In this document: positions 20,011 through 55,819 of the stretch, one piece after another | Layout of the letters: each line of letters opens with the position of its first letter | How positions within the stretch are numbered: position 1 is the first letter of the stretch | Assembly (NCBI RefSeq): GCF_963678975.1 | Contig: NC_089276.1 | Span: 2,377,445-2,441,444, forward strand | Reading direction: 5' to 3' | DNA: 64,000 nt | DNA from: Dysidea avara | Taxonomy: Eukaryota; Porifera; Demospongiae; Dictyoceratida; Dysideidae | Notes under the pieces: generated by a model | Told to the model about the DNA's origin: nothing | Seen by the model: the letters and a program-made list of their open reading frames with translations, nothing else | Databases searched by the model: none | Made by a program: the position numbers and the translations under genes

Positions 20011-20310
20011 AATATCGTCGATGTTTAGCAAATGTCATCAATGTTTAGCAAATGTCGTCGATGTTTAGCAAATGTCATCAATGTTTAGCAAATGTCATCA
20101 ATGTTTAGCAAATGTCGTCGATGTTTAGCAAATGTCATCAATGTTTAGCAAATGTCATCAATGTTTAGCAAATGTCGTCGATGTTTAGTAAATGTCGTCG
20201 ATGTTTAGTAAATGTCGTCGATGTTTAGCAAATGTCGTCGATGTTTAGTAAATGTTGTCGATATTTAGCTAAATGTCGTCGATGTTTAGTAAATATTGAC
20301 GATATTGGTC
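20011..20310 (+). repeat. 20-bp tandem array with 60-bp higher order
   Basis: About 15 units of AATGTCGTCGATGTTTAGCA and a variant with ATCA in place of GTCG (AATGTCATCAATGTTTAGCA). In the middle the order is variant-variant-consensus, repeating every 60 bp. The last units drift and end near 20310. Confidence 0.9.
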
Positions 20311-30252: not shown

Positions 30253-31425
30253 CTACAAGTAGTTCAGGTTTGAGGTGGGTGGACGTGACTGGTGGCATCT
30301 TGAGCAAGGACAGAGATAGTGTAGTGAGCAATTGTTGTTATCTTCAAAGTTAGTTATAAAATGATCCCAGAGAAAAGTTTTTAGTTTTGATTTTAGCAGA
30401 GGAAACGTTAGATCCAAGTTAAGGATAGGCATGGCATTCCTGAGAGTTGGTAATCTATGGAAATAAGAATGTCTAGATACGTTATTTAAATGATGAGGGA
30501 TGATCAATTTGTTGCTGGTGCCGGATCTAGTATTAGCTGAGCTGAAGTTGATATGATCATAAATATTGAACTGTTTAGTTTGTACCTTGATTGATTTGAT
30601 TGCAAATAATATATCTTGTAACTCGAACAGGTACATCAGAGGAAGGATCCTTAGTTTTACTAGACGGGTTTTGTAACTACTGGTGTAATCATTTAATAGA
30701 TACTTAGTGGCACGGCGCTGGGTTTGCTCAAGAGTTAAAATGTCTTTCACCAGGTGTGGACGCCATAGTTGGGTGCTATAGAGCAGCTGAGATCGAACCA
30801 TTGAAATATATAATGTGACCAATGTAGAAGTAGAATGGGTAGAAGCAATAGTACGACGTATTAGTCCCAATACCTTGTATGCACGAGCAGAGATTGATTT
30901 GTAGTGTTTGTCCCAACTTAGATTCTCAGATAATATGAGCCCTAAGTCCTTGTGTGAGTCATTATGTGGTATAGTAATATCCGAAATGGTGTAGGTGGTT
31001 TCTAACTTGCATTTAAATGATGAATGTACGAATTTTTTTAGATTAAAATTCAGATCTGTCTCTCTGGACCAAGTAAATAAAGCGATGATATCTTCTTGCG
31101 GAGCGTTGTAGTCAGATGTAGTACAGATGTGCATGAAACACTTGGTATCATCGGCAAATTTTAGGAGTTGGCTTTGGTGTATATATGATGTCATGTCATT
31201 TATATAAATTAGAAATAGCACGGGGCCAAGTATGCTGCCCTGGGGCACACCTGAGAGAACTGGCAGTAAATCGGAGTAACAGTTGTTGATGCAAACACGT
31301 TGATATCGATCAGTCAGATATTCCCGGAACCAAGCCCAGAGTGTACCAGTTATTCCAGCAGACCAAAGCTTGTTGAGCAAGATGGCATGAGATACGGTAT
31401 CGAAGGCTTTACTGATATCGAAGTA
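30253..31425 (-). pseudogene. LINE2 reverse transcriptase, C-terminal part
   Basis: Open from the transposon junction (YFDISKAFDTVSHAILL) through SGVPQGSILGPVLFLIYINDM and the catalytic KFADDTKCF box to the C-terminus and stop. The N-terminal RT motifs are on the other side of the pogo insertion. The protein is clearly different from LINE1 and LINE3, so it is a separate family. Interrupted, hence inactive. Confidence 0.8.
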
Positions 31426-31870
31426 GAGTAAGCCACCGATGTTCAGCCACCAGGTGTTTTCGGACGCCAGTACACAGAAACTACGGAATCTATCAAGTTG
31501 AATTTTGCATCATTATTGCCTTAGGCCATCACCATCCAGCACACCAAGTTTTGTAGAATTCCATGAAGGACTATGGGTTTGGCGAGCCATTAGGTGGTTG
31601 TCCGAATCACATGTAGTTTTGGCCAAAAGTATGAATTTACGGACTGTAGTTCGCAAAGCTTATCAGATGCACAGATCTTAATGCAACTTGGTAACTAGTA
31701 AGGGTAGTCACCTAAGGTTCAGCATACCAAATATTAGCTAATTTCTCAAAGCCACACCCGAGTAATCGCTGAATGTATGAGAGCATGTAGGGCAATCAAA
31801 CATCGGACATTTATGCTACACGAAATTGCAGCTTCTGGTGGATTTTATTAGCCAATTCAGACGTGATCAA
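31426..31870 (+). repeat. Left terminal inverted repeat of the pogo transposon
   Basis: Matches the right end in reverse complement from GAGTAAGCC through the GCATACCAAATATTAGCTAA and GCTTTGAG-type phrases. The right-hand copy is interrupted by A3. Confidence 0.8.
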
Positions 31871-32149
31871 CTGCTCTACGCTACCAAACAGTAAACTAAA
31901 TCATTTTAAGCATTTAGTATAGTCTTATGCACGAGCAGCCGGACCTAGAACAGCTGATACAAAGCTCAGCATAGACTAGGTGCTGTTCAAGCACAAAAAC
32001 TGTTAAAAGTATAAACTTACGACGAAAAATTATATACCTACTAGATCAACAAAAACACTCATTTGCTCCAACCATATATAAATGAAACAACACGCTCTTA
32101 TATTAGAAATGTAGTCTAGGTCTCGTGATCCGTTTTAAGCTTTCTTTGT

Positions 32150-32230
32150 TATACGGTGTATGTTTAGACGAGCAGTTCAGTCGGAAGCAACTGTAGTTTT
32201 CTTGCTTCTAAACAGCTTAATAAGCAAATA
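32150..32230 (+). promoter_or_regulatory. Candidate 5' untranslated exon and splice donor of the transposase
   Basis: Sequence ends AAGCAAATAG followed by GTGAGTG (donor at 32231). A good acceptor, TTCTTTACAG, lies at 33245-33254, just before an ATG at 33256. The MITE at 32445-33172 would then lie inside this intron. Inferred from splice-site consensus only. Confidence 0.35.
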
Positions 32231-32444
32231 GGTGAGTGATTTTAGGCCATAAGCGTAATTCTATGTGTTTATGTGCTTTCTTTTGTTAAGAACCATTTTG
32301 GGCCGGTTTAGCTAGGCATGTTTGGGCCAGCCAGCAGTGGTGGGTGTATGCGTGTTCATCAGGCCTTGCGTAGGTCTAATTTCAGTTTACTGTTGAGTCT
32401 GAAGTCGGACAGCGTCACTGGGATAAGGGAACTACGGTAGCTAG

Positions 32445-33172
32445 AGGGAGTATGGAAAACCCGAAACGCCGGAACAACCCGGATCAGCCGAAACAGGTTT
32501 ATTTTTGCGATTGTGATCACGTGCAAACACTATGGCATGCCCGCTTTTAAGTTATAACACTCCACAATAGACTATTTCTATATACTTTTATAATCTAACT
32601 TTGCAGCAACTCCGCAGTGTACACAATGGATCGACGGCGAGCCTTAATTGGAATGCACAATTGCTAAATTCATCCTAAAACTATCCTAAACTACACTCTA
32701 CACCCTTAACTGAGGTGAAGGGATTTTATTAAAGCATCTTCATGGATACTGCAACTTCTAGCTAGTACTGTACAAAGCTAAGCAGCCCACTCGTATAAGT
32801 GACCGAATTTAATAGAGTCACACTAACAAGGTAGGCTTGTACACTGTCACTGTAGTACAGTACTAGCTATAAGTTGCAGTATCCATGAAGATGCTTTAAT
32901 ATCCCTTCACCTTAAGGGTGTAGAGTGTAGCTGAGATAGTTTTAGGATGAATTTAGCAATTGTGCATTCCAATTAAGGCTCGCCGTCGATCCATTGTGTA
33001 CACTGCAGAGTTGCTGCAAGGTTATAGATTATGTATATAGAAATAGTCTATTGTGGAGTATTATAACTTAAAAGCGGGCTTGCCATAGTGTTTGCACGTG
33101 ATCACAATCGCAAAAATAAACCTGTTCCGGCTGATCCGGGTTGTTCCGGCGTTCCGGGTTTTCCATACTCCC
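32445..33172. mobile_element. Fold-back MITE, 728 bp, 8-bp TSD GTAGCTAG
   Basis: Arms of about 330 bp are near-perfect inverted copies (ends GGGAGTATGGAAAACCCG). GTAGCTAG flanks it exactly at 32437-32444 and 33173-33180. No coding sequence. It sits in the presumed 5' intron of the transposase gene. Confidence 0.85.
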
Positions 33173-33381
33173 GTAGCTAGACTTATAATAGCTACATTGT
33201 AACATAGTTATTACTTTGGGAGTATATCATTTTTCATGCTTTTGTTCTTTACAGCATGGCTCAGTTTTATCCACCACTTAAGGAAAGAGTCATCAAGGCA
33301 AAATCTGTCGGATGTACAGTTGTAAATACCAGTATTGCTACTACTAGCCGAGGTGTGTACAAAGATTGAGATGAAGATAGA

Positions 33382-35115
33382 ATGGTTCGCGCAGTTGACA
33401 GTGTCCTTAAGAAGAAAGCTAGTATAAGAAAAGCAGGGGAAATGTATGGCATACCAAAATCCACAATTGCAGATCGAATAAGTGGGTGTGTGATGGAGGG
33501 AGCTAGAAGTGGTCCACTTAGGTATCTCAACACACAGCAAGAAGAGGAGCTTGTACACTTTCTGTTAGAGTGTGCTTCAATTAGATATCCAAAGAGTCGT
33601 CAAGAAGTGATTGGTATGGTGCAGCGTCTATTAAGTGACTGTGGGATTGAAAAAACTGTGACACATGGTTGGTTGGAATCGTTTTGCCACCGTCATCCTA
33701 ATGTAGCATTGCGTGCTACCGCCTCCTTATCCCTTTCCAGAGCTAAAGCGTCAGACACTACTGTTATTAACAAATATTATGATCTTCTTGAAAGCACCAT
33801 GGATTTATATGACCTTCATGATAAACCTTGCCAGCTGTTTAACGTTGACGAAACTGGTATGCCTCTTAATCCCAAACCTTTAAGAATGGTTTGTGGCACA
33901 GGATCAAAGAATCCGGCTTCAATATGCTCAGGTAACAAGTCTCAAATTACTATAGTCGGGTGTGTCAATGCTGCAGGCTACTGTATTCCTCCTATGGTCA
34001 TCTATGGTCGCAAAGCTATCAGAGCTGTGTTGGTGGAAAATGAAATTCCTGGTACAATCTATGGGTTGTCTTCCAAAGGTTGGATTGATCAAGACCTGTT
34101 TGATCAGTGGTGTGACCACTTTTTGTGCTATACTCCATCGACTAGACCACTACTTTTATTGATGGATGGACATTCCGCACACTATTGTCCAAGTGTTATT
34201 CACCGTGCTTCTGAAAATAAAGTGGTGCTGATGGCTTTGCCACCTAATACAACGCATTTAACACAACCTTTGGATAAAGGTATATACGGGCCTCTAAAAG
34301 TTGAGTGGAGGAAGGTATGTCATGATTATATTGTTCAAAACCCTGGAAAACTGATTACGCTATACAATTTTTCTCCTTTATTTTCAAAAGCTTGGATGAA
34401 AAGCATGACAATTATGAATATTATGGCTGGGTTTAGCACTACAGGAATTTTCCCAACTGATAGAAATAAAGTGATTTCCAAGTTGGAAGCATCCATGTGT
34501 ACTCCAACAAAACAACCCAGCAAGCTGTCATATTTGCCGTTGCTGACACCTGTTCCTTCACCACCCAGAAAAACAAGCAGTAAAAAATGCATTGTTTTTT
34601 CAGAATTAGAAATACAGCTGTTTCTTGAGAGACATGAGGAGGGATATGATGGTGGGGATGAGCGGTACAAAATTTGGCTGGAAACATACCACCCAGGAGC
34701 AGAAACTATCAGTAATGTTTCCTTGAATCAGTCTGTTTTTCATACACCAAAGCAAGAAAGTAAAACTAAGAAGTATACTCAGATTGCTGTTGTTTCAAAA
34801 CCTGCAAGTAGAATTGATAAACTTTTTAGTAAACCGGACCTGCCTTCTAAGTTACCAACTAAAACAGAAAAAAGCTGTGGACGGGTTCTTACCAGTTCTG
34901 AGGCATTGAAGCTTTTACAAGAGAAGGAAGAAAAAAAAGATGTGGCCAAGCAGAAGAAAGATGCTGCCAAGCAGAAGAAAGATGCTGTCAAGCAGAAGAA
35001 AGAACTTTGTCAAAACAATGCAGAAAAGAAAGTACAGAAGCAAGTAGATGAGAATGTTGGAATAGTTGAAGAGGGAAGTAAGAGGAAAGATAATCCAGGT
35101 AACATTATCATGTAA
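33382..35115 (+). CDS. Pogo/Tigger-like DDE transposase
   Basis: 577 residues. Order: psq-type helix-turn-helix (about 5-40, RKAGEMYGIPKSTIADRI); CENP-B-type second HTH (about 50-110, ending GWLESFCHRHP); DDE core with Asp in FNVDETGMPLN (about 155), Asp in LLLLMDGHSAHY (about 255) and Asp in THLTQPLDKGIYGPLK (about 290), giving the DDD arrangement usual for pogo; then a Lys-rich tail with a 7-residue repeat (KQKKDAA type). It cuts and joins element ends at TA targets in the nucleus. The open frame also runs upstream to an ATG at 33256, right after a splice acceptor, but TGA at 33367-33369 (codon 38) interrupts it. The preceding residues (RGVYKD, then DEDRMV) make a Trp the expected residue there. 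So either initiation is at 33382, or the natural start is broken. Confidence 0.85.
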   Translation: MVRAVDSVLKKKASIRKAGEMYGIPKSTIADRISGCVMEGARSGPLRYLNTQQEEELVHFLLECASIRYPKSRQEVIGMVQRLLSDCGIEKTVTHGWLESFCHRHPNVALRATASLSLSRAKASDTTVINKYYDLLESTMDLYDLHDKPCQLFNVDETGMPLNPKPLRMVCGTGSKNPASICSGNKSQITIVGCVNAAGYCIPPMVIYGRKAIRAVLVENEIPGTIYGLSSKGWIDQDLFDQWCDHFLCYTPSTRPLLLLMDGHSAHYCPSVIHRASENKVVLMALPPNTTHLTQPLDKGIYGPLKVEWRKVCHDYIVQNPGKLITLYNFSPLFSKAWMKSMTIMNIMAGFSTTGIFPTDRNKVISKLEASMCTPTKQPSKLSYLPLLTPVPSPPRKTSSKKCIVFSELEIQLFLERHEEGYDGGDERYKIWLETYHPGAETISNVSLNQSVFHTPKQESKTKKYTQIAVVSKPASRIDKLFSKPDLPSKLPTKTEKSCGRVLTSSEALKLLQEKEEKKDVAKQKKDAAKQKKDAVKQKKELCQNNAEKKVQKQVDENVGIVEEGSKRKDNPGNIIM

Positions 35116-37012
35116 CCTACAGAGCATGCATAACAGATGTTGTCCTTTAAGCGTGATTATATAATCCTGATACACTACTGGCTGACTCCATTGATAATTA
35201 TTACTTTGTGTGCATGTTCGTATGGGGCTGGAATGAAGGCTTCGTAATCTTTATACCTTCGAAGAGGGTTTGAAAAGCTTCATATCCATGGTTACAGTCT
35301 TATAAATTCAGTAAAAGTTGTGAAATATCACCAAAATTTTATTGTGTGGTATAGCTGTATAGTATCTAAAGCCTGTATACTATTTTTATAGCTGCTACAA
35401 TGAGTGTGCCCACAAGTCACCACATAGGCATATACACAGTGCTGGCAATTATGCAAGAAGCTTTATAGGATTCAGAGACTTTACTAAATGCATGTCTGAT
35501 CTGTACTATACAAGTATAAGAAAAAGTTAGGAATTTTCAGTATGAGTAGGGACTGTAATAAAAAGGACTGTCAAAGCAAACTTGAACACAACTCAACAAC
35601 TGAGTGTATGCTTTTTAATCCCTACTTTAGCCATGTGCAACTAATAACAAATGGCTAAAGCAAGGATTAAAATGCATATACTCATTTGTTGAGTCATGTT
35701 CAATTTTGCTTTGCCAGCTTGTTTCAGTGCTTTTAATTGCAGTTCCTACTCATACCGAAAATTCCTAATTTTTTCTTACACTTGTTTGTGTACTCTTTTT
35801 TGTAAATGAATTTTATTTAGCACACAATTGTGTCTAGAGTGTGTTAATCACAGCAAAGAAAGGCACTGGCTTAGCTAGTTAACCTTGCTTAAAAGAAGCA
35901 CACTAAAATACTTTTAAGCACGTACATTCTCGATGATGTACAAGAGTAACTAACTGCATGGTAAAGTAGATAACACAACACACTGTTTAAATCGGCACAA
36001 GCGTGAAACATTGGTGTAATCAGTGGGAAGCCATATACAGTACAATAGTGCATTCCAGCATAAATGTGGGCGAGTCTATAATTCCAGTAGACATTTAATA
36101 TTGTGTTTGTCATTGGAACCATTCTCCCAAAGAAGTAACACAGTAGGTATAGGCAATTTACAGCTAGGTTTACAGCTAGCAAAGTCAGGTGACACGCCCT
36201 TTATTTAGCTAGTAGCTAGTGAACTGGTCACGCCCTCTATTTAACCTGTGAGTACCTGTACAGTTGTACCCCCACCGGACCTTCTGTGATCCTTTTGCAG
36301 CATACAAGCATGTCCCTACCCATGGTGTATCTCAAATAAAATCACGTGAGTGTTACAATTTGTTAAGTCATACGTGTTGATTGTACAGTACTGCTTACTG
36401 ACTACTAATGGAAGCCATACAGATGAGCAATGGCCAAGATAAAGAAAGATCAAAGCTAAAACTGTAACAGAATAGTGCTTAAAATTGTGAAAAGTTTTCT
36501 GCCTTGAAATTCTAGGCATTTCCACCAAAGAAGTAAGGCTGTAGCTGCAGCCAGTTTTCCACTACGCTTGACTGAATGAATCAGGCAGAAAGACAGTCAG
36601 TAGAATATTTGCTAAATAATTTTTTTTTAAATATCGTAGCACCTCGTCAAAAACGCTTAGAGTTGTTCTAAAGACACATTTTGGCTTGTTTCTGCATGAC
36701 CAATACTGCCAAGTGGTCGTGAAGGATTTGTGAAGATAAGTTTAAGTTGATTTCTTCATGGACCACGTCCACAAATCACCAATGTCCCTACTATGTCGTA
36801 CTGTATGATACGTACGTAACAAGCACACCTCACGTATGGTTGCACTCTGGTATCACTACTTTTTGTCATCATGTGCTAGTGAATTCTGCTGCATGTACTG
36901 GATGTCCACAGCTATTATATGTTGTTTTGCATAGGTTCCAATTTTTTTTGTTTGATTAAAATTAAATACAGCTAGGTAGTAGTGTATATATAGTTCTACA
37001 TAATATTGTGTA
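35116..37012. other. Non-coding spacer between transposase and Ulp1-PHD genes
   Basis: No convincing exon apart from the fold-back MITE at 35511-35784. A possible splice acceptor (CCTTTTGCAG, ends 36300) could belong to an unseen 5' exon of the downstream gene. Confidence 0.4.
35511..35784. mobile_element. Fold-back MITE, about 274 bp
   Basis: Ends CAAGTATAAGAAAAAGTTAG and CTAATTTTTTCTTACACTTG. The arms are imperfect inverted copies throughout. A duplicate is at 44381-44654 by virtue of the repeated contig. Confidence 0.7.
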
Positions 37013-37875
37013 ATGAATTTAAGGAAATGTGGTCTATTTGTAGGGAAATTTAAGAATTATGAAGTGTCTGATGATGTTGAAATTACGAATTGTAATAATA
37101 GTGACAAGCCTTTATCAAAATCAAAGATACGACGTCAAAAACTAGACAGTAGAAAAACCATGAAGCATTTAGTATCCTTCAAACTTCCTTCTTTACAGTG
37201 CATATTGAGTGGAAAGTGGTTGAACGACACTCACATTAATGCAGCAAGTCAGCTTCTAAAGGCTCAGTTTCCTTCTGTTTTGGGTTTACATGACACAAAG
37301 TATGGACAAGATTTGTCTTTTCCCAACACTGATAGCCCGTTTGTGCAGATTTTACATTCTAAAAATCACTGGTTGACAGTGGAAGGAGTAAACTCATCTT
37401 TAGTAAAAGTATATGATACCCCAGCATTGAAAATGTGCAAGCTCAAATTGCTGCAATTATACAGAGCTCCAGTAAGTCCATTAATTTTTAATTGGAGACA
37501 ATGCAAGAACAGCTTGGAAGCAGTGACTGTGGATTATTTTCAATAGCATATGCAACTGAATTGTGTTTTGGAAATGATGTCTCTTGTTTGTGTTACTATC
37601 AAGACAAGTTAAGGCCTCATTTTGTAGAGTGTCTTAGATCAGAAAAATTGGTTCCATTTCCATCTAAGTCAATCAGAAGAAGAAAGGCCTTGCCCACCAC
37701 ACTTACTTTTGACATATACTGCTCTTGTCGTCTGCCAGAGTTGGTGGGAGGAGAACCAATGGCAGCATGTGAGAAATGTCACGAATGGTACCATCGTTCC
37801 TGTGAGAATATTCCCAAGGAAGTTTTCACTGAGAGCGATGTTCAGTGGGTTTGCAGTAAGTGTGTAAATGATTGA
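37013..37875 (+). CDS. Ulp1/SUMO-protease-like domain fused to PHD finger (frameshifted)
   Basis: Two overlapping frames form one gene. Part 1 (37013 to about 37498): WLNDTHINAASQLLKAQFP and FVQILHSKNHWLTVEG (catalytic His), then VYDTP (Asp). Part 2 (from about 37499): MQEQLGSSDCGLFSIAYA (Gln and catalytic Cys). Together these give the C48 His-Asp-Gln-Cys set. A C-terminal C4HC3 PHD finger follows: YCSCRLPE, CEKCHEWYHRSC, VCSKC; stop at 37875. Proteases of this class remove SUMO or related modifiers; PHD fingers usually read histone H3 tails. A 1-nt shift near 37490-37503 separates the parts. GTAAGT...AG at 37472-37497 would also join them in phase, but a 26-nt intron is implausibly short, and the skipped residues look like normal protease sequence. 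So I read it as a frameshift, or possibly a programmed one. Confidence 0.75.
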
Positions 37876-39570
37876 TGATTTTGAGTGACAACACTGCAAG
37901 GCGTATATAAACTCTAATACAAGTAACATGTTATTAGTTGTCTTTATGGTATGTATTATCAGTTTGAAAGCTTTATGTTATATTTTTATTTGTAAGTAAA
38001 GTGTGCCATCAATGTACGGTCACCAGGTAGCTTTGGATGCCAGCTGCAGCACGCTGAAATGTAATCCACTGTATTAACTTGCGTTCTGCATCATTATTAC
38101 CTTAGACTCTCACCATATAGCATACAAAGTTTTTGTAGAATTTCATTAGGACTTGGTTTGGTGAGCAGCTCACAAAGTGCACAACAGCTCAGTATTTAGC
38201 ACAGGTAACCATCCAAATGTATGAGTGTGTGTAGCAGGGATGGATCAAAAGGGACCCAAATTTAGTTGTAAATATGTGGTAACAAGTTTATGATGTAGCC
38301 ACAGCTATGTATAGAATAGCCATATCTGACCTTCGTCGGTAACTCCATAGCTATAACTGCAACCAGGCAAACGTATGTCTAGTAAAAATGCATAATAATG
38401 ATTGCTCTATTAGAGTAGTTGACTGCTTTATCAGAATAATGAAATTAAAGTGCAGATCACTACATATTTCACTCCTGCCTATTCTCAAGGGTACGGTGCT
38501 ACGTTATGATCAATTTTTCCCATTCAAGAGTTTAAATGTTTTCATGGCTGCCTATCTGTTGTAAGGCAACCATTTATTTCATATTATTATTCAATTTTAC
38601 ATGTAACTGCATCTTGTAAATTTAAGAGTAAATTAACCAACATCAAAGTTAATTAATTGATGTATGACATACATATTTGTAACTGCACCAATGTCTTTGT
38701 GCACCATACTCTTTTTGAGGTATTGCACAACACAATAAATAAAGTAAATCATATTGAGGATATATTGTGGTCTTCTGACAATCTGCAGCTGCACAGCTAT
38801 AGTGAGAAAAGTCAGAACTGCTGATAGTAGCCTACATTGCTTATTAAAGTAATCATGCATGATACAGTAGAAATTTTGAAGCATTGTGCATTAATTAAAA
38901 GTGACTGCTCACTATAAAATATTTGCATGCTTTAGTTTGTTAGGCACTGAGGATAAGTTGCCAATTACCAACTGATTAATTACTATCACATCTTTGTATG
39001 CAATATTTATTTTAATTGTAGTATCTCTTGCAAATGTCTTACCTTGACATCAAGATGTCTGAGCTAAAAGAAACTATAATGCATATATAATGAACGATTT
39101 AACAGAACTCCGCCTGTTTCTGTAGATAATTCATTTACTGGTAGTTAGGCTATAATACATTCCTATAATGCACAGATACAAACTTTTACACAAATTTTGC
39201 AGTAGCTGGTTTGTTACAAAAAATGAATAGTTCAGTATTCTCTTCTTAAATCTTCTATGCATTATATATGTGCTATTCTCAGTATGGAATTTCCATGACC
39301 TTAAAAATAGCTTATAATTATATCAAAATCAATATTTCATGCATGGCATGGACAAAGGCCATGCATGACATTCCCACAAACTTTAGACTATTATAGTATA
39401 ACGTTCTAGGTCATTAATTAAAAGATATTCTGATAAAACAGTCAAGCATGAAGTTTCAACTATACTCTAATAGAACAATCACTAATAGCTACAAAAAATT
39501 TCTGTACTTTATCAATTAACTTTTATTTTGAGGGAATAAGTTAGCAAAAGGGGTTTAATTTAATTGCTGT
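37876..39570. other. Non-coding right part of the pogo transposon
   Basis: Contains an internal terminal-repeat-like block (37995-38200) and D-repeat fragments near 38397-38430 and 39462-39481. No gene recognised. Confidence 0.45.
37995..38200 (+). repeat. Internal, diverged copy of the pogo left terminal repeat
   Basis: AGTAAAGTGTGCCATCAATG... aligns with the left end from GAGTAAGCC onward. It includes TCACCAGGTAG...GATGCCAG, GCATCATTATTACCTTAGAC and TTTGTAGAATTTCATTAGGA, all in left-end orientation. It is clearly older than the outer terminal repeats. Confidence 0.6.
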
Positions 39571-39779
39571 CAGGGGCGGATCTAGGATTTTTGAAAGGGG
39601 ATTTCCAGAGGTACACATCTGGAGGATTTGATTGACTGTTCTATTAGAGTATCTCGATCTTATAAAGGTTTGCTGGATAGCTATTACTTAATGTTTGGAC
39701 AGCTGTTCTGAAGCAAGCCCATCCTAGAGGGGTTTTTGGAAACCTCAGAAACCCCCCTCCACCCCTAAAACCGCCCCTG
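39571..39779. mobile_element. MITE with CAGGGGCGGATC ends, 5-bp TSD GCTGT
   Basis: Left end CAGGGGCGGATCTAGG; right end ACCGCCCCTG. GCTGT flanks it exactly at 39566-39570 and 39780-39784. A D repeat is nested near 39630-39660. Same family as 4715-5051. Confidence 0.8.
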
Positions 39780-40092
39780 GCTGTATAGCAGTCCTGACTT
39801 CTCAAAATCAAATAGCTAGCTTGCTAGCTGTGCAGCTGCAGATCGTCATAAGACTACAATAAACACTTAATATAATTTATTTTGTTGTTTGTTAGCATAA
39901 AACAGGTGAACACGTATAAATTTGCTCATAAATCCACCAAAAGTTGTATAGTTTCGTGTAGAATAGATGTCCGATGTTTGATTGCTCTACACGCGATAAT
40001 ATATTCAACGATTGCTCGGGCGTGGCTTTGAGTAATTAGCTAATATTTGGTATGCTGAACCTTAGGTGACTACTCTTACTAATTACCAAGTT

Positions 40093-41579
40093 TAGGGTCC
40101 GCAATCCGAAAAATCTACTTTCACAAATCAATCCCCTACCATTGTGGGATGTTCATTGTAGTATCCCATTGCTAGATCCACCATGAAACCGGAGGCACGA
40201 TTGTTGTCTTCACAGAACTATCGATTTTAGTATTTCGTGAGATGCAAAAATTATTTTAAAATTTCGTGCTCCACACAAACAACAGGATAGAACCTGCTGC
40301 TTAGCTAGGTATTATCTAGAGTTAATGTAGTTAAAAAGTACGCACAGTAATACGCAAATGATTCACTGGGTTACCGGCACAGGGTTGCTTTCTCTCAAAA
40401 AGCAGAAAACAAAATACGAATTTTCAAATTCAAACTGCCCTACCAGCCAAGATAAGAAAAGCCAACTCTTCCTCATAGTGATGTGATAAGGTTGGATGCA
40501 TAGTCTGTCTATGCTGTTAGTCTGGAAAGGATCTGAGACTTCTCACCATCTGGGTGAAGAACGTCAAAATTTTCGTGCATCATTTCAAGGGATTCTCTCA
40601 ATGGTACCAAAGTGCTTTCCAGTACTTCTGATGCCACACCGGTCACTTAATTTTGATTAGAATGATGATAAAAGATGGTTCAAAACGTTTGGTAGTAGTA
40701 GTAGTTGGTATTTCTGTGATTTCATATGATGCAGTATACCAGCAGCTCACCAGGAGCTCCACCCAGCTCGAATCAAAAATGAAAGATTTTGTGCATTTTT
40801 CGGTTTGTTTTGGGATGTTTTGCAGCATAATGGTGATGTAGGGTGATCTAGTGAAGATTTGAAGCTGCTGTGGAGCGTGAGAGGTGAAGTCAATTTTGGA
40901 CGATTTTGCTGCCTCCCTTGATGCATAGCTTAGAGCGAGACGTGGAAGCTGTGGATGAAGCAATAATTGACAACCGCTATTATCAGACGTTCAGGGACAT
41001 CTTTTGCCATAGTTTTAGTCTATAATTAATGATTTTTGAGGCTGCAGAAGCGCTGGAAATGGCTAGAAAGTGCGACACAATTCTTTGATGCTGCAGAAAA
41101 TTTTGACGCTCGTCACCCAGATGGTGAGAAGTCTCAGATCTTTTCCAAACAAACAGCATAGACGGACTATGCACCCAACCGTATCGAAACACTATGAGGA
41201 ATAGTTGGCTTCTCTTGCCCTGGGTGGTAGGACAGTTTGAATTCGAAACTTCGTATTTCTTTGTCTGTTTTTTCAAAGAAAGCAACCCTGTGCCGGGCAC
41301 CCAGCAAATCATTTACTTATTTCTGTGCGTAGTTTTCAACTACAACAACTCTGGATACAATGTGGCTAAGTAGCAAGTTTCATCCGGTCCTTTGTGTGGA
41401 GCACGAAATTTTAAAAGTAAATCTTGCATCTTGTGAGATACTGAAAATGATATTTCTGTGAAGACAACAATCGTGCCTCCGGTTTCATGGTGGATCAAGC
41501 AATGGGATACTACAATGAACACCCCACAATGGTAGGGGGATTGATTTGTAGAAATTGATTTTTCGGATTGCGGACCCTA
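40093..41579. mobile_element. hAT-like fold-back element A3, nested in the pogo right end
   Basis: Ends TAGGGTCCGCAATCCGAAAA and its complement. It splits the right terminal repeat with duplication of CCAAGTT (or ACCAAGTT, one base being ambiguous). Arms of several hundred bases are inverted, but diverged in the interior from A1/A2, so this is a related subfamily. No transposase; short frames only. Confidence 0.8.
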
Positions 41580-41845
41580 CCAAGTTGCATTGAGATCTGT
41601 GCATATACTGGGCTTTGCGAGCTACAGTCCGAAAATTCATACTTTTGGCCAAAACTGCATGCGATTCGGACAACCACTTAATGGTAGGCCAAACCCACAG
41701 TCCTTGATGGAATTCTACAAAACTTGGTGTGCTGGATGGTGATGGTCTAAGGTAATAACAATGCAAAATTCAACTTGATAGATTCTGTAGTTTCTGTGTA
41801 CTGGCGTCCGAAAACACCTGGTGGCCGAACATCGGTGGCTTACTC
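41580..41845 (-). repeat. Right terminal inverted repeat of the pogo transposon (outer part)
   Basis: The reverse complement matches 31426-31690 at roughly 90% or better. It continues at about 39890-40092 on the other side of A3. Confidence 0.8.
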
Positions 41846-41986
41846 TACACCACATCAGTTTGTGAGGGGCTGTTAATTATGTAGTCGGGTAGGAAAATTA
41901 GCATTTGTTGTAAGGTTGAACAGTTTTTAGTGAAACCAAACTGAGAACAACTAATATATTTACTAATGTGAGTGATAATTTTGTTG

Positions 41987-42186: not shown

Positions 42187-42251
42187 CAGTTGTAAATACC
42201 AGTATTGCTACTACTAGCCGAGGTGTGTACAAAGATTGAGATGAAGATAGA

Positions 42252-43985
42252 ATGGTTCGCGCAGTTGACAGTGTCCTTAAGAAGAAAGCTAGTATAAGAA
42301 AAGCAGGGGAAATGTATGGCATACCAAAATCCACAATTGCAGATCGAATAAGTGGGTGTGTGATGGAGGGAGCTAGAAGTGGTCCACTTAGGTATCTCAA
42401 CACACAGCAAGAAGAGGAGCTTGTACACTTTCTGTTAGAGTGTGCTTCAATTAGATATCCAAAGAGTCGTCAAGAAGTGATTGGTATGGTGCAGCGTCTA
42501 TTAAGTGACTGTGGGATTGAAAAAACTGTGACACATGGTTGGTTGGAATCGTTTTGCCACCGTCATCCTAATGTAGCATTGCGTGCTACCGCCTCCTTAT
42601 CCCTTTCCAGAGCTAAAGCGTCAGACACTACTGTTATTAACAAATATTATGATCTTCTTGAAAGCACCATGGATTTATATGACCTTCATGATAAACCTTG
42701 CCAGCTGTTTAACGTTGACGAAACTGGTATGCCTCTTAATCCCAAACCTTTAAGAATGGTTTGTGGCACAGGATCAAAGAATCCGGCTTCAATATGCTCA
42801 GGTAACAAGTCTCAAATTACTATAGTCGGGTGTGTCAATGCTGCAGGCTACTGTATTCCTCCTATGGTCATCTATGGTCGCAAAGCTATCAGAGCTGTGT
42901 TGGTGGAAAATGAAATTCCTGGTACAATCTATGGGTTGTCTTCCAAAGGTTGGATTGATCAAGACCTGTTTGATCAGTGGTGTGACCACTTTTTGTGCTA
43001 TACTCCATCGACTAGACCACTACTTTTATTGATGGATGGACATTCCGCACACTATTGTCCAAGTGTTATTCACCGTGCTTCTGAAAATAAAGTGGTGCTG
43101 ATGGCTTTGCCACCTAATACAACGCATTTAACACAACCTTTGGATAAAGGTATATACGGGCCTCTAAAAGTTGAGTGGAGGAAGGTATGTCATGATTATA
43201 TTGTTCAAAACCCTGGAAAACTGATTACGCTATACAATTTTTCTCCTTTATTTTCAAAAGCTTGGATGAAAAGCATGACAATTATGAATATTATGGCTGG
43301 GTTTAGCACTACAGGAATTTTCCCAACTGATAGAAATAAAGTGATTTCCAAGTTGGAAGCATCCATGTGTACTCCAACAAAACAACCCAGCAAGCTGTCA
43401 TATTTGCCGTTGCTGACACCTGTTCCTTCACCACCCAGAAAAACAAGCAGTAAAAAATGCATTGTTTTTTCAGAATTAGAAATACAGCTGTTTCTTGAGA
43501 GACATGAGGAGGGATATGATGGTGGGGATGAGCGGTACAAAATTTGGCTGGAAACATACCACCCAGGAGCAGAAACTATCAGTAATGTTTCCTTGAATCA
43601 GTCTGTTTTTCATACACCAAAGCAAGAAAGTAAAACTAAGAAGTATACTCAGATTGCTGTTGTTTCAAAACCTGCAAGTAGAATTGATAAACTTTTTAGT
43701 AAACCGGACCTGCCTTCTAAGTTACCAACTAAAACAGAAAAAAGCTGTGGACGGGTTCTTACCAGTTCTGAGGCATTGAAGCTTTTACAAGAGAAGGAAG
43801 AAAAAAAAGATGTGGCCAAGCAGAAGAAAGATGCTGCCAAGCAGAAGAAAGATGCTGTCAAGCAGAAGAAAGAACTTTGTCAAAACAATGCAGAAAAGAA
43901 AGTACAGAAGCAAGTAGATGAGAATGTTGGAATAGTTGAAGAGGGAAGTAAGAGGAAAGATAATCCAGGTAACATTATCATGTAA
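42252..43985 (+). CDS. Pogo/Tigger-like transposase, duplicated contig copy
   Basis: Identical in translation to 33382-35115. Upstream sequence including the ATG equivalent of 33256 falls in the gap; the codon-38 TGA is present just before the start. Probably the same gene, represented twice. Confidence 0.8.
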   Translation: MVRAVDSVLKKKASIRKAGEMYGIPKSTIADRISGCVMEGARSGPLRYLNTQQEEELVHFLLECASIRYPKSRQEVIGMVQRLLSDCGIEKTVTHGWLESFCHRHPNVALRATASLSLSRAKASDTTVINKYYDLLESTMDLYDLHDKPCQLFNVDETGMPLNPKPLRMVCGTGSKNPASICSGNKSQITIVGCVNAAGYCIPPMVIYGRKAIRAVLVENEIPGTIYGLSSKGWIDQDLFDQWCDHFLCYTPSTRPLLLLMDGHSAHYCPSVIHRASENKVVLMALPPNTTHLTQPLDKGIYGPLKVEWRKVCHDYIVQNPGKLITLYNFSPLFSKAWMKSMTIMNIMAGFSTTGIFPTDRNKVISKLEASMCTPTKQPSKLSYLPLLTPVPSPPRKTSSKKCIVFSELEIQLFLERHEEGYDGGDERYKIWLETYHPGAETISNVSLNQSVFHTPKQESKTKKYTQIAVVSKPASRIDKLFSKPDLPSKLPTKTEKSCGRVLTSSEALKLLQEKEEKKDVAKQKKDAAKQKKDAVKQKKELCQNNAEKKVQKQVDENVGIVEEGSKRKDNPGNIIM

Positions 43986-45882
43986 CCTACAGAGCATGCA
44001 TAACAGATGTTGTCCTTTAAGCGTGATTATATAATCCTGATACACTACTGGCTGACTCCATTGATAATTATTACTTTGTGTGCATGTTCGTATGGGGCTG
44101 GAATGAAGGCTTCGTAATCTTTATACCTTCGAAGAGGGTTTGAAAAGCTTCATATCCATGGTTACAGTCTTATAAATTCAGTAAAAGTTGTGAAATATCA
44201 CCAAAATTTTATTGTGTGGTATAGCTGTATAGTATCTAAAGCCTGTATACTATTTTTATAGCTGCTACAATGAGTGTGCCCACAAGTCACCACATAGGCA
44301 TATACACAGTGCTGGCAATTATGCAAGAAGCTTTATAGGATTCAGAGACTTTACTAAATGCATGTCTGATCTGTACTATACAAGTATAAGAAAAAGTTAG
44401 GAATTTTCAGTATGAGTAGGGACTGTAATAAAAAGGACTGTCAAAGCAAACTTGAACACAACTCAACAACTGAGTGTATGCTTTTTAATCCCTACTTTAG
44501 CCATGTGCAACTAATAACAAATGGCTAAAGCAAGGATTAAAATGCATATACTCATTTGTTGAGTCATGTTCAATTTTGCTTTGCCAGCTTGTTTCAGTGC
44601 TTTTAATTGCAGTTCCTACTCATACCGAAAATTCCTAATTTTTTCTTACACTTGTTTGTGTACTCTTTTTTGTAAATGAATTTTATTTAGCACACAATTG
44701 TGTCTAGAGTGTGTTAATCACAGCAAAGAAAGGCACTGGCTTAGCTAGTTAACCTTGCTTAAAAGAAGCACACTAAAATACTTTTAAGCACGTACATTCT
44801 CGATGATGTACAAGAGTAACTAACTGCATGGTAAAGTAGATAACACAACACACTGTTTAAATCGGCACAAGCGTGAAACATTGGTGTAATCAGTGGGAAG
44901 CCATATACAGTACAATAGTGCATTCCAGCATAAATGTGGGCGAGTCTATAATTCCAGTAGACATTTAATATTGTGTTTGTCATTGGAACCATTCTCCCAA
45001 AGAAGTAACACAGTAGGTATAGGCAATTTACAGCTAGGTTTACAGCTAGCAAAGTCAGGTGACACGCCCTTTATTTAGCTAGTAGCTAGTGAACTGGTCA
45101 CGCCCTCTATTTAACCTGTGAGTACCTGTACAGTTGTACCCCCACCGGACCTTCTGTGATCCTTTTGCAGCATACAAGCATGTCCCTACCCATGGTGTAT
45201 CTCAAATAAAATCACGTGAGTGTTACAATTTGTTAAGTCATACGTGTTGATTGTACAGTACTGCTTACTGACTACTAATGGAAGCCATACAGATGAGCAA
45301 TGGCCAAGATAAAGAAAGATCAAAGCTAAAACTGTAACAGAATAGTGCTTAAAATTGTGAAAAGTTTTCTGCCTTGAAATTCTAGGCATTTCCACCAAAG
45401 AAGTAAGGCTGTAGCTGCAGCCAGTTTTCCACTACGCTTGACTGAATGAATCAGGCAGAAAGACAGTCAGTAGAATATTTGCTAAATAATTTTTTTTTAA
45501 ATATCGTAGCACCTCGTCAAAAACGCTTAGAGTTGTTCTAAAGACACATTTTGGCTTGTTTCTGCATGACCAATACTGCCAAGTGGTCGTGAAGGATTTG
45601 TGAAGATAAGTTTAAGTTGATTTCTTCATGGACCACGTCCACAAATCACCAATGTCCCTACTATGTCGTACTGTATGATACGTACGTAACAAGCACACCT
45701 CACGTATGGTTGCACTCTGGTATCACTACTTTTTGTCATCATGTGCTAGTGAATTCTGCTGCATGTACTGGATGTCCACAGCTATTATATGTTGTTTTGC
45801 ATAGGTTCCAATTTTTTTTGTTTGATTAAAATTAAATACAGCTAGGTAGTAGTGTATATATAGTTCTACATAATATTGTGTA

Positions 45883-46745
45883 ATGAATTTAAGGAAATGT
45901 GGTCTATTTGTAGGGAAATTTAAGAATTATGAAGTGTCTGATGATGTTGAAATTACGAATTGTAATAATAGTGACAAGCCTTTATCAAAATCAAAGATAC
46001 GACGTCAAAAACTAGACAGTAGAAAAACCATGAAGCATTTAGTATCCTTCAAACTTCCTTCTTTACAGTGCATATTGAGTGGAAAGTGGTTGAACGACAC
46101 TCACATTAATGCAGCAAGTCAGCTTCTAAAGGCTCAGTTTCCTTCTGTTTTGGGTTTACATGACACAAAGTATGGACAAGATTTGTCTTTTCCCAACACT
46201 GATAGCCCGTTTGTGCAGATTTTACATTCTAAAAATCACTGGTTGACAGTGGAAGGAGTAAACTCATCTTTAGTAAAAGTATATGATACCCCAGCATTGA
46301 AAATGTGCAAGCTCAAATTGCTGCAATTATACAGAGCTCCAGTAAGTCCATTAATTTTTAATTGGAGACAATGCAAGAACAGCTTGGAAGCAGTGACTGT
46401 GGATTATTTTCAATAGCATATGCAACTGAATTGTGTTTTGGAAATGATGTCTCTTGTTTGTGTTACTATCAAGACAAGTTAAGGCCTCATTTTGTAGAGT
46501 GTCTTAGATCAGAAAAATTGGTTCCATTTCCATCTAAGTCAATCAGAAGAAGAAAGGCCTTGCCCACCACACTTACTTTTGACATATACTGCTCTTGTCG
46601 TCTGCCAGAGTTGGTGGGAGGAGAACCAATGGCAGCATGTGAGAAATGTCACGAATGGTACCATCGTTCCTGTGAGAATATTCCCAAGGAAGTTTTCACT
46701 GAGAGCGATGTTCAGTGGGTTTGCAGTAAGTGTGTAAATGATTGA
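45883..46745 (+). CDS. Ulp1-like/PHD gene, duplicated contig copy (frameshifted)
   Basis: Same sequence as 37013-37875, with the same frame break near 46360-46373. A real ancient duplicate would be expected to have diverged somewhere; it has not in any part I compared. See the entry at 37013 for domains. Confidence 0.7.
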
Positions 46746-48440
46746 TGATTTTGAGTGACAACACTGCAAGGCGTATATAAACTCTAATACAAGTAACATG
46801 TTATTAGTTGTCTTTATGGTATGTATTATCAGTTTGAAAGCTTTATGTTATATTTTTATTTGTAAGTAAAGTGTGCCATCAATGTACGGTCACCAGGTAG
46901 CTTTGGATGCCAGCTGCAGCACGCTGAAATGTAATCCACTGTATTAACTTGCGTTCTGCATCATTATTACCTTAGACTCTCACCATATAGCATACAAAGT
47001 TTTTGTAGAATTTCATTAGGACTTGGTTTGGTGAGCAGCTCACAAAGTGCACAACAGCTCAGTATTTAGCACAGGTAACCATCCAAATGTATGAGTGTGT
47101 GTAGCAGGGATGGATCAAAAGGGACCCAAATTTAGTTGTAAATATGTGGTAACAAGTTTATGATGTAGCCACAGCTATGTATAGAATAGCCATATCTGAC
47201 CTTCGTCGGTAACTCCATAGCTATAACTGCAACCAGGCAAACGTATGTCTAGTAAAAATGCATAATAATGATTGCTCTATTAGAGTAGTTGACTGCTTTA
47301 TCAGAATAATGAAATTAAAGTGCAGATCACTACATATTTCACTCCTGCCTATTCTCAAGGGTACGGTGCTACGTTATGATCAATTTTTCCCATTCAAGAG
47401 TTTAAATGTTTTCATGGCTGCCTATCTGTTGTAAGGCAACCATTTATTTCATATTATTATTCAATTTTACATGTAACTGCATCTTGTAAATTTAAGAGTA
47501 AATTAACCAACATCAAAGTTAATTAATTGATGTATGACATACATATTTGTAACTGCACCAATGTCTTTGTGCACCATACTCTTTTTGAGGTATTGCACAA
47601 CACAATAAATAAAGTAAATCATATTGAGGATATATTGTGGTCTTCTGACAATCTGCAGCTGCACAGCTATAGTGAGAAAAGTCAGAACTGCTGATAGTAG
47701 CCTACATTGCTTATTAAAGTAATCATGCATGATACAGTAGAAATTTTGAAGCATTGTGCATTAATTAAAAGTGACTGCTCACTATAAAATATTTGCATGC
47801 TTTAGTTTGTTAGGCACTGAGGATAAGTTGCCAATTACCAACTGATTAATTACTATCACATCTTTGTATGCAATATTTATTTTAATTGTAGTATCTCTTG
47901 CAAATGTCTTACCTTGACATCAAGATGTCTGAGCTAAAAGAAACTATAATGCATATATAATGAACGATTTAACAGAACTCCGCCTGTTTCTGTAGATAAT
48001 TCATTTACTGGTAGTTAGGCTATAATACATTCCTATAATGCACAGATACAAACTTTTACACAAATTTTGCAGTAGCTGGTTTGTTACAAAAAATGAATAG
48101 TTCAGTATTCTCTTCTTAAATCTTCTATGCATTATATATGTGCTATTCTCAGTATGGAATTTCCATGACCTTAAAAATAGCTTATAATTATATCAAAATC
48201 AATATTTCATGCATGGCATGGACAAAGGCCATGCATGACATTCCCACAAACTTTAGACTATTATAGTATAACGTTCTAGGTCATTAATTAAAAGATATTC
48301 TGATAAAACAGTCAAGCATGAAGTTTCAACTATACTCTAATAGAACAATCACTAATAGCTACAAAAAATTTCTGTACTTTATCAATTAACTTTTATTTTG
48401 AGGGAATAAGTTAGCAAAAGGGGTTTAATTTAATTGCTGT

Positions 48441-48649
48441 CAGGGGCGGATCTAGGATTTTTGAAAGGGGATTTCCAGAGGTACACATCTGGAGGATTTG
48501 ATTGACTGTTCTATTAGAGTATCTCGATCTTATAAAGGTTTGCTGGATAGCTATTACTTAATGTTTGGACAGCTGTTCTGAAGCAAGCCCATCCTAGAGG
48601 GGTTTTTGGAAACCTCAGAAACCCCCCTCCACCCCTAAAACCGCCCCTG
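48441..48649. mobile_element. 5-bp-TSD MITE, duplicated contig copy
   Basis: Same as 39571-39779, offset 8,870. Confidence 0.75.
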
Positions 48650-48962
48650 GCTGTATAGCAGTCCTGACTTCTCAAAATCAAATAGCTAGCTTGCTAGCTG
48701 TGCAGCTGCAGATCGTCATAAGACTACAATAAACACTTAATATAATTTATTTTGTTGTTTGTTAGCATAAAACAGGTGAACACGTATAAATTTGCTCATA
48801 AATCCACCAAAAGTTGTATAGTTTCGTGTAGAATAGATGTCCGATGTTTGATTGCTCTACACGCGATAATATATTCAACGATTGCTCGGGCGTGGCTTTG
48901 AGTAATTAGCTAATATTTGGTATGCTGAACCTTAGGTGACTACTCTTACTAATTACCAAGTT

Positions 48963-50449
48963 TAGGGTCCGCAATCCGAAAAATCTACTTTCACAAATCA
49001 ATCCCCTACCATTGTGGGATGTTCATTGTAGTATCCCATTGCTAGATCCACCATGAAACCGGAGGCACGATTGTTGTCTTCACAGAACTATCGATTTTAG
49101 TATTTCGTGAGATGCAAAAATTATTTTAAAATTTCGTGCTCCACACAAACAACAGGATAGAACCTGCTGCTTAGCTAGGTATTATCTAGAGTTAATGTAG
49201 TTAAAAAGTACGCACAGTAATACGCAAATGATTCACTGGGTTACCGGCACAGGGTTGCTTTCTCTCAAAAAGCAGAAAACAAAATACGAATTTTCAAATT
49301 CAAACTGCCCTACCAGCCAAGATAAGAAAAGCCAACTCTTCCTCATAGTGATGTGATAAGGTTGGATGCATAGTCTGTCTATGCTGTTAGTCTGGAAAGG
49401 ATCTGAGACTTCTCACCATCTGGGTGAAGAACGTCAAAATTTTCGTGCATCATTTCAAGGGATTCTCTCAATGGTACCAAAGTGCTTTCCAGTACTTCTG
49501 ATGCCACACCGGTCACTTAATTTTGATTAGAATGATGATAAAAGATGGTTCAAAACGTTTGGTAGTAGTAGTAGTTGGTATTTCTGTGATTTCATATGAT
49601 GCAGTATACCAGCAGCTCACCAGGAGCTCCACCCAGCTCGAATCAAAAATGAAAGATTTTGTGCATTTTTCGGTTTGTTTTGGGATGTTTTGCAGCATAA
49701 TGGTGATGTAGGGTGATCTAGTGAAGATTTGAAGCTGCTGTGGAGCGTGAGAGGTGAAGTCAATTTTGGACGATTTTGCTGCCTCCCTTGATGCATAGCT
49801 TAGAGCGAGACGTGGAAGCTGTGGATGAAGCAATAATTGACAACCGCTATTATCAGACGTTCAGGGACATCTTTTGCCATAGTTTTAGTCTATAATTAAT
49901 GATTTTTGAGGCTGCAGAAGCGCTGGAAATGGCTAGAAAGTGCGACACAATTCTTTGATGCTGCAGAAAATTTTGACGCTCGTCACCCAGATGGTGAGAA
50001 GTCTCAGATCTTTTCCAAACAAACAGCATAGACGGACTATGCACCCAACCGTATCGAAACACTATGAGGAATAGTTGGCTTCTCTTGCCCTGGGTGGTAG
50101 GACAGTTTGAATTCGAAACTTCGTATTTCTTTGTCTGTTTTTTCAAAGAAAGCAACCCTGTGCCGGGCACCCAGCAAATCATTTACTTATTTCTGTGCGT
50201 AGTTTTCAACTACAACAACTCTGGATACAATGTGGCTAAGTAGCAAGTTTCATCCGGTCCTTTGTGTGGAGCACGAAATTTTAAAAGTAAATCTTGCATC
50301 TTGTGAGATACTGAAAATGATATTTCTGTGAAGACAACAATCGTGCCTCCGGTTTCATGGTGGATCAAGCAATGGGATACTACAATGAACACCCCACAAT
50401 GGTAGGGGGATTGATTTGTAGAAATTGATTTTTCGGATTGCGGACCCTA
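48963..50449. mobile_element. Element A3, duplicated contig copy
   Basis: Same as 40093-41579, offset 8,870. The pogo right end then finishes at 50715, with TA at 50716-50717. Confidence 0.75.
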
Positions 50450-50715
50450 CCAAGTTGCATTGAGATCTGTGCATATACTGGGCTTTGCGAGCTACAGTCC
50501 GAAAATTCATACTTTTGGCCAAAACTGCATGCGATTCGGACAACCACTTAATGGTAGGCCAAACCCACAGTCCTTGATGGAATTCTACAAAACTTGGTGT
50601 GCTGGATGGTGATGGTCTAAGGTAATAACAATGCAAAATTCAACTTGATAGATTCTGTAGTTTCTGTGTACTGGCGTCCGAAAACACCTGGTGGCCGAAC
50701 ATCGGTGGCTTACTC

Positions 50716-50936
50716 TACACCACATCAGTTTGTGAGGGGCTGTTAATTATGTAGTCGGGTAGGAAAATTAGCATTTGTTGTAAGGTTGAACAGTTTTTAG
50801 TGAAACCAAACTGAGAACAACTAATATATTTACTAATGTGAGTGATAATTTTGTTGTAGATTAGTCTTTCAAGAACTTTAGATGTGTTGGATAGGAGCGA
50901 GATGGGACGATAATTTCTTACAGAACAATGGTCGCA
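50716..50936 (-). pseudogene. LINE2 reverse transcriptase, N-terminal part
   Basis: Reads VRNYRPISLLSNTSKVLERL, then ISKYISCSQFGF, then up to QTDVVY at the TA junction, with the frame intact. It is the missing first part of the RT seen at 30253-31425. Bases 41846-41986 carry the same 3' portion at the end of the left contig. The coding match begins at about 50936, the 5' truncation point. Confidence 0.75.
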
Positions 50937-55553: not shown

Positions 55554-55802
55554 TGTATTGTGAAGCTAGTTGCTGTGTTACTCGCAGTTATTACCAATAG
55601 CCAGTTAGTTAACACAATAAATAGCAGAATAATAAATAGTAAGTACAACACACAATATATATAGAGACAACCATACAACTACACATGGTGTCATACATCA
55701 TTACAGTATAAGTCAATTATAGCTAGCTAATACATTACACTTATAAGAAGGTTACATACAAAGTATGTGTGTGCATGTTGTTCAGTATTGGATCACACCA
55801 CA
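55554..55802 (-). repeat. 3' LTR of the gypsy element
   Basis: 249 bp, TG...CA ends. On the minus strand it starts TGTGGTGTGATCCAATACTG. Confidence 0.85.
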
Positions 55803-55815: not shown

Positions 55816-55819
55816 AGTC

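What the first reader, a model, noticed from the sequence alone, without database searches (positions are those of the whole stretch)
31426..41845. TA-target pogo transposon carrying a Ulp1-protease/PHD gene
Seen: exact TA duplication restoring LINE2, about 450-bp inverted ends, a pogo-type DDD transposase, and, between the same ends, a gene with His-Asp-Gln-Cys protease motifs and a C4HC3 PHD finger. Known: Ulp1-type proteases ride on some Mutator-like and KDZ-type transposons; for the Tc1/mariner-pogo group I know no such cargo. Inference: the protease may remove SUMO from silencing proteins, or process the transposase, while the PHD finger directs it to chromatin. At 10.4 kb it is very large for a pogo element, though nested MITEs account for about 2.7 kb.
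Basis: partly seen in the sequence, partly recalled or inferred. Interest (0 to 1): 0.82.

Follow-up and report, generated by a model that had tools for sequence, protein, structure and literature searches.

The report
SUMO-protease/PHD module on pogo transposon
A cut-and-paste jumping gene in a sponge carries, behind its own transposase, a module that looks like a SUMO-removing protease joined to a chromatin-reading finger, a module so far described on other kinds of jumping genes.

Summary
Window 31426-41845 is a pogo-type element with TA target duplication and about 510-bp inverted ends inside a reverse-transcriptase frame. The Ulp1-PHD sequence is family cargo, not a one-off: of four gene-bearing copies found in the host genome (probably the sponge Dysidea avara), 3 hold transposase and Ulp1-PHD in the same place; the fourth lost the transposase C-terminus and all of Ulp1-PHD in one deletion. 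Two relatives with 58-60% identical transposases seem to pair both, judged by shared contig lengths. Of 63 more distant pogo matches in the genome none has a detected Ulp1 match within 10 kb. Splice sites of matching phase give an open 901-codon transposase-Ulp1-PHD frame in an intact copy, so a fusion is more likely than a separate gene; no transcript was seen. The module folds like SENP/Ulp1 with a PHF2/PHF8-like PHD. The window copy is broken. Ulp1 tails are described for Ginger1 (one with PHD), Mutator and Crypton elements; my paper searches (listings and passages only) showed none on pogo. New variant of a known kind; function is inference.

The parts
31424..31425 (.). TA target-site duplication, left
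31426..31934 (+). left terminal inverted repeat, tip GAGTAAGCC
   Evidence: 455/529 aligned bases identical to the right end
32446..33172 (.). nested fold-back element
   Evidence: inverted repeats I3, I6, I10, I12
33256..35098 (+). transposase coding exon (HTH_psq, HTH_Tnp_Tc5, DDE_1); in-frame stop at 33367 in this copy
   Evidence: Pfam; tblastn with P0008; splice donor after 35098
35099..37043 (+). putative phase-1 intron, GT..AG
   Evidence: same sites in copy C1 (1952 nt there)
35510..35785 (.). small fold-back element inside the putative intron
   Evidence: (I8)
37044..37875 (+). Ulp1-like protease + PHD exon; frame-shifting gap near 37420 and stop at 37489 in this copy
   Evidence: open frame in copy C1
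37717..37866 (+). PHD finger (within the exon)
   Evidence: Pfam; profile match to PHF2/PHF8
37999..38799 (+). internal left-type end in direct orientation (284/521 aligned bases identical to the left end)
   Evidence: at least its outer part is present in all four copies; copy C1 lacks the equivalent of 38388-38911
39843..40092 (-). right terminal inverted repeat, inner part
40093..41577 (.). nested fold-back element splitting the right end; absent at this site in copies C1 and C14
41578..41845 (-). right terminal inverted repeat, outer part
41846..41847 (.). TA target-site duplication, right

Best explanation
A sponge pogo-type DNA transposon family whose transposase gene has gained a 3' exon for a Ulp1/SENP-type cysteine protease followed by a PHD finger, so that splicing yields one protein of about 900 residues (DNA-binding helix-turn-helices, DDD transposase, lysine-rich linker, protease, PHD). 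Shown: both coding blocks lie between the same ends in several genomic copies and have matching splice signals. Inferred: the transposase arm holds the element ends, the PHD arm favours H3K4-methylated, accessible chromatin, and the protease removes SUMO (or a related tag) from local silencing or repair proteins, or from the transposase, so that the element stays mobile. Likelihood by step: cargo of the family 0.95; spliced fusion 0.75; active Ubl/SUMO protease in intact copies 0.7; counter-silencing as the main role 0.35.
Against: No transcript was available, and no deposited fused protein was found: the search whose length range includes 901 aa gave 7 hits, none with DDE_1. An in-frame ATG shortly before the acceptor leaves a stand-alone protein possible. 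Pfam Peptidase_C48 is below cut-off for P0128 (14.8 bits against 20.7) and absent for the first window piece. Same branching order in three taxa has one chance in three of arising by accident. Sameness of contigs is inferred from lengths. Differences between genomic copies look neutral (C1 against C14 Ulp1-PHD: 1 synonymous, 10 nonsynonymous codons).
Confidence: 0.65

Rival explanations
1. The Ulp1-PHD block is a second, separately expressed gene of the same transposon, not fused to the transposase.
For: An in-frame ATG lies just before the acceptor (ORF list), and the exon alone is an open frame of 293 codons in copy C1. [quoted passage not shown]
Against: No start shared among the 25 relatives' ORFs, by eye. 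Matching phase-1 splice sites with an open 901-codon product. In Ginger1 the domains are C-terminal parts of the transposase (PMC2836005, passages); in P0002, P0004 and P0006 the module follows a SWIM finger, and in P0005 an rve domain, in one ORF.
Confidence: 0.2
2. The protease acts on another tag (NEDD8 or ubiquitin) or processes the fusion protein itself, separating transposase from PHD.
Against: The best protease rows of the profile search are SENP1; no experiment decides.
Confidence: 0.25
3. The module is a passenger: captured once and carried along without a function in transposition or silencing.
For: Neutral-looking differences between copies. One copy with both ends lacks it (C15). 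Related elements of about 3.4-3.8 kb exist, and the two fetched whole (L012, L013) showed no match to either gene.
Against: Catalytic residues unbroken in the aligned rows of relatives at 42-99% identity. Similar modules recur beside SWIM/MULE, rve and GIY-YIG domains. Copies without genes can be moved in trans, so they do not by themselves argue for a passenger.
Confidence: 0.12
4. A host or foreign gene landed once inside this single copy.
For: Several nested insertions in the element. A left-type end sits right behind the exon.
Against: Same gene, same place in three copies on three contigs. Two diverged relatives seem to pair both genes. No inverted ends found around the exon.
Confidence: 0.02

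Closest known systems
Ginger1 DNA transposons (PMC2836005, passages read)
   Same: Ulp1 domain, in one listed family (Ginger1-9_HM) Ulp1 plus PHD, C-terminal in the transposase; several have introns
   Different: Ginger1 transposase is of the Gypsy-integrase (rve) type; here DDE_1/pogo with TA duplication. In the Ulp1-PHD tree a four-row group with rve-bearing P0005 sits near the pogo-borne clade, but P0001, which by eye has a Ginger-like integrase tail, falls elsewhere on a long branch
Mutator-like elements with Ulp1 (named in PMC2836005, passages)
   Same: Ulp1-PHD with a MULE transposase; also in this genome (L053, MULE ORF 5196-6902, Ulp1-PHD ORF 6857-8110) and with SWIM in P0002/P0004/P0006 (P0006 has no PHD match)
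   Different: MULE transposase; target duplications of 9-11 bp in the part of the group table seen (PMC6446971, passages) instead of TA
CryptonF/CryptonS of oomycetes and MarCry-1_FO (PMC3212892, passages)
   Same: C48/Ulp1 peptidase on some Cryptons; MarCry-1_FO shows a Mariner-type, TA-duplicating element carrying other coding cargo
   Different: The C48 carriers use a tyrosine recombinase; no PHD named; MarCry-1_FO is not said to have C48
Amphimedon queenslandica LOC109582507 isoform X4 (P0124)
   Same: DDE_1/HTH_psq transposase with a C-terminal PHD-like finger in one deposited protein
   Different: no Ulp1 match; PHD 17.9 bits, below the cut-off of 24
pogo superfamily (PMC7386202, PMC7325037)
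   Same: pogo-type transposase; Tigger reported from Porifera (PMC7386202, passage)
   Different: Ulp1 counted 0 in both papers (listing); PHD 0 in both, protease 0 in PMC7325037

Membership tests
pogo superfamily (Tc1/mariner group) | TA target-site duplication | tested here: met
   window, C1 and C15 copies
pogo superfamily (Tc1/mariner group) | DDE_1 catalytic domain with DDD triad and N-terminal Psq/Tc5 helix-turn-helix | tested here: met
   Pfam 72.1, 37.3, 24.7 bits, all above cut-off; D160, D266, D302
pogo superfamily (Tc1/mariner group) | place among named pogo subfamilies (Tigger, Passer etc.) by tree with reference elements | not tested
   no reference transposases were placed in the tree
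Ulp1/SENP (C48) protease | His-Asp-Gln-Cys catalytic residues | tested here: met
   conserved in every row without a gap there, of 25 relatives
Ulp1/SENP (C48) protease | SENP/Ulp1 fold | tested here: met
Ulp1/SENP (C48) protease | Pfam PF02902 curated cut-off | tested here: inconclusive
   P0128 14.8 bits, below 20.7; no match for the window pieces; more distant relatives P0002, P0004, L045, L037 exceed it
Ulp1/SENP (C48) protease | SUMO cleavage | not testable with these tools
   needs an enzyme assay
PHD finger | C4HC3 zinc pattern / PF00628 | tested here: met
   31.1 bits, cut-off 24
H3K4me3-reading PHD | aromatic cage (positions recalled, not from a call) | tested here: inconclusive
   Y/F 22/22, M 20/20, W 19/20 at three positions, but E/D 21/21 at the fourth, rows with a gap set aside; best solved matches PHF2, PHF8
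Ginger1 | rve/Gypsy-integrase transposase | tested here: not met
   DDE_1 and helix-turn-helix matches, no rve
Mutator-like element | MULE/SWIM transposase | tested here: not met
   no MULE or SWIM match; TA duplication

The most novel reading that the evidence does not exclude
A SUMO-protease/PHD module is traded between unrelated mobile elements (pogo, Ginger-type, Mutator-like and a GIY-YIG-bearing element that looks Penelope-like), and on pogo it is spliced onto the transposase as one large protein: a portable counter-silencing and targeting tail, perhaps taken up by pogo from a Ginger-like source.
Probability: 0.45. Interest if true: 0.72.

Novelty: new variant of a known kind. Interest (0 to 1): 0.56.

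Why it matters
The same kind of protease-plus-reader tail on several unrelated transposases suggests a shared need, such as escape from SUMO-dependent silencing or steering to open chromatin. A case with an intact genomic copy and a single catalytic cysteine makes it directly testable whether transposons counter SUMO-based repression. It also extends the carriers of the module to the pogo group, as far as my searches show.

Tried and rejected
One-off insertion of the protease gene into this copy: rejected by copies C1 and C14. Separate inverted ends around the gene: none found. Second tandem copy at 42187-50856: rejected as an assembly duplication (100% identity over 8670 bp beside a 200-N gap), not proven without reads. 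A short intron instead of a frame break in the protease: rejected, because relative P0128 and copy C1 align through the stretch with a gap and a stop in the window. Scans of viral contigs and of prokaryote genome contigs gave no related loci. The first window protease piece alone gave no Pfam hit and two unconvincing PDB sequence hits. Bacterial promoter/terminator scan: uninformative. Other fold neighbours (bacterial and viral cysteine proteases) rank below the SENPs.

Literature: nine searches, judged from their listings: one search listed 15 of 136 papers, 12 of 36, 8 of 15,209. Among listed papers counted for both pogo and Ulp1, only PMC2836005 and PMC3212892 hold both words, and their passages do not join them. 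Subscription papers and Repbase reports are not held, so this is not proof of absence. Five papers were seen as term passages (PMC2836005, PMC3212892, PMC6446971, PMC7386202, PMC7325037); none was read whole.

Full report
What is there. Window 31426-41845 is a DNA transposon inside a reverse-transcriptase frame (RVT_1). TA flanks both ends, and removing the element restores the frame. The inverted ends are about 510 bp with 455 of 529 aligned bases identical. Nested fold-back elements lie at 32446-33172, 35510-35785 and 40093-41577. The transposase ORF matches HTH_psq, HTH_Tnp_Tc5 and DDE_1 above Pfam cut-offs.

The host. The window is C5:2377445-2441444 of a 550.8-Mb genome in 108 contigs. 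Contig C15 is 14,207,406 bases long, exactly the longest contig given for P0084, which a source names as a Dysidea avara protein. I infer that the host is the demosponge Dysidea avara (taxonomy).

The assembly. 33317-41986 and 42187-50856 are identical over 8670 bases and flank a 200-N gap. I treat this as a scaffold artefact; the duplicate rows it causes are counted once below.

Is the Ulp1-PHD sequence cargo? A search of the host genome with relative P0128 gave 141 matches. Six rows at 82-84% identity are three loci (C1, C14, and the window with its duplicate, in two pieces each); the other 135 rows are at 28-43%. A search with transposase P0008 gave 70 matches: five rows at 96-100% are four loci (C1, C14, C15, and the window with its duplicate), two rows at 79-81% are one further, partial locus (C14:14829245), and 63 rows are below 60%. 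Of the seven close rows, those of C1, C14 and the window have a Ulp1 match within 4 kb; C15 and C14:14829245 have none within 40 kb. Of the 63, none has one within 10 kb and one has it at 34 kb. The tool scores only its best candidates (141 of 1054 and 70 of 1070), so counts are lower bounds.

Copy C1 (28107870-28121041) aligns with the window from the left end to 38387 at 97.7% over 7 kb, then through the rest of the element, but lacks the equivalent of 38388-38911 and has its own 4.8-kb insert in the right end. It has TA on both sides and different flanks. Copy C14 keeps the right end, Ulp1-PHD and much of the transposase; its left end was not found, and its Ulp1-PHD has one stop. Copy C15 has both ends and TA flanks but lacks window-equivalent 34703-37888, that is the transposase C-terminus and all of Ulp1-PHD, and carries large insertions. 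So 3 of 4 gene-bearing copies have the module in the same place, and the exception is a deletion. A search with the outer 268 bases of the left end scored 40 of 110 candidates: 8 rows at 85-100% are ends of these four copies (with the duplicate), and 32 rows at 78-80% are related ends, several paired about 3.4-3.8 kb apart. Two such elements fetched whole, L012 and L013, gave no tblastn match to either gene (empty output; ends aligned).

Relatives elsewhere. Protein search with the module gave 67 hits and with the transposase 546, of which 120 were listed. Two contig lengths, 5982 and 463342, occur in both lists (P0017 with P0139, P0014 with P0141). Contig names were not shown, so sameness is inferred; lengths jittered by 10% give a mean of 0.27 matches and a match above 100 kb in 20 of 20000 trials. 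In the 5982-bp case both genes must be close; in the 463-kb case they need not be. A quick tree of 75 rows puts the window, P0139 and P0141 in one clade of 26 (SH-aLRT 99), near a four-row group that holds the rve-bearing P0005; P0001 and P0007 lie elsewhere on long branches. A quick tree of 45 transposases (44 of the 120 listed plus the window) puts window, P0014 and P0017 in one clade of 18 (support 100) with the same branching order. Pairwise identities agree in rank (transposase 60, 58, 62%; module 49, 49, 51%). With three linked pairs this is only weak evidence of co-divergence.

One protein or two? The transposase ORF runs five codons past a GT donor (35099, score 7/9, phase 1), and the protease frame has a pyrimidine-AG acceptor at 37043 (phase 1). 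Copy C1 has the same sites, and its joined exons read 901 codons without a stop. The 25 relatives' ORFs share no starting methionine (by eye). Close transposase relatives end in short unrelated tails after the lysine-rich stretch (by eye), as expected of intron read-through. Against the fusion: no transcript, no deposited fused protein among 7 hits of the fitting length range, and a possible start codon just before the acceptor.

State of this copy. The window copy is broken: a stop near the transposase start, a frame-shifting gap and a stop in the protease. Between copies C1 and C14 the module differs at 1 synonymous and 10 nonsynonymous codons, and the transposase of C1 and window at 6 and 19, so recent copies are not visibly constrained; constraint is seen only across families, as conserved protein residues.

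How it may have been captured (inference, about 0.3). All four copies keep at least the outer part of a diverged left-type end directly behind the PHD exon, in direct orientation. The inner part of the right end resembles this internal end (82% over 68 nt) beyond the point where the outer left end stops matching. A composite move using the outer left end and the far right end of a neighbouring non-autonomous copy would pick up whatever lay between, including a Ulp1-PHD exon.

Known and new. Ulp1, in one family with PHD, at the end of the transposase is described for Ginger1, and Ulp1 for Mutator elements (PMC2836005, passages) and some Cryptons (PMC3212892, passages); the latter paper also describes MarCry-1_FO, a Mariner-type element with Crypton cargo. 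In my hits the module also sits behind SWIM and rve domains and, without a PHD match, in a GIY-YIG protein, and next to a MULE transposase in this same genome (L053). The searches listed under Tried and rejected showed no pogo or Tc1/mariner element with Ulp1; two pogo surveys count Ulp1 0 and PHD 0. The finding is a new variant of a known kind.

Noticed in passing
window 33317-41986 and 42187-50856: 8670 identical bases on both sides of a 200-N gap; probably overlapping contig ends left unmerged.
   Followed up: partly
window 37999-38799: Diverged left-type transposon end in direct orientation behind the PHD exon, its outer part kept in all four gene-bearing copies; the right end's inner part resembles it.
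   Followed up: partly
L053 5196-8110: MULE transposase ORF followed by an overlapping Ulp1-PHD ORF in another frame (43% identical to P0128) in the same genome.
   Followed up: partly
P0007 (1280 aa): Protein with a Ulp1-like stretch (32% identity) and a GIY-YIG domain; the rest looks like a Penelope-type reverse transcriptase (recalled, not tested).
   Followed up: no
P0124: Amphimedon queenslandica pogo-type transposase with a C-terminal PHD-like finger (below cut-off) and no Ulp1 match.
   Followed up: partly
L037, L045, L046: Ulp1-PHD-like tails at the end of long ORFs without a Pfam transposase match (L046: PHD only by Pfam); carrier unidentified.
   Followed up: partly
G000, tip GAGTAAGCC: 1588 occurrences against 298 for the reversed pattern; of the 18 loci L001-L018 fetched around such tips, only L012, L013 and L017 match this element's ends, so other families seem to share the tip.
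   Followed up: partly
window 510-4412 (-): Non-LTR retrotransposon with endonuclease and RT matches; its upstream ORF (3420-4412) has a C4HC3-like finger by eye but no Pfam match at E 0.001.
   Followed up: no
window 55554-59888 (-): LTR-retrotransposon-like unit: 249-bp direct repeats 97% identical around RT and aspartyl-protease ORFs.
   Followed up: no
window 10067-13486 and 20011-20294: Tandem arrays with 26-bp and 20-bp units.
   Followed up: no
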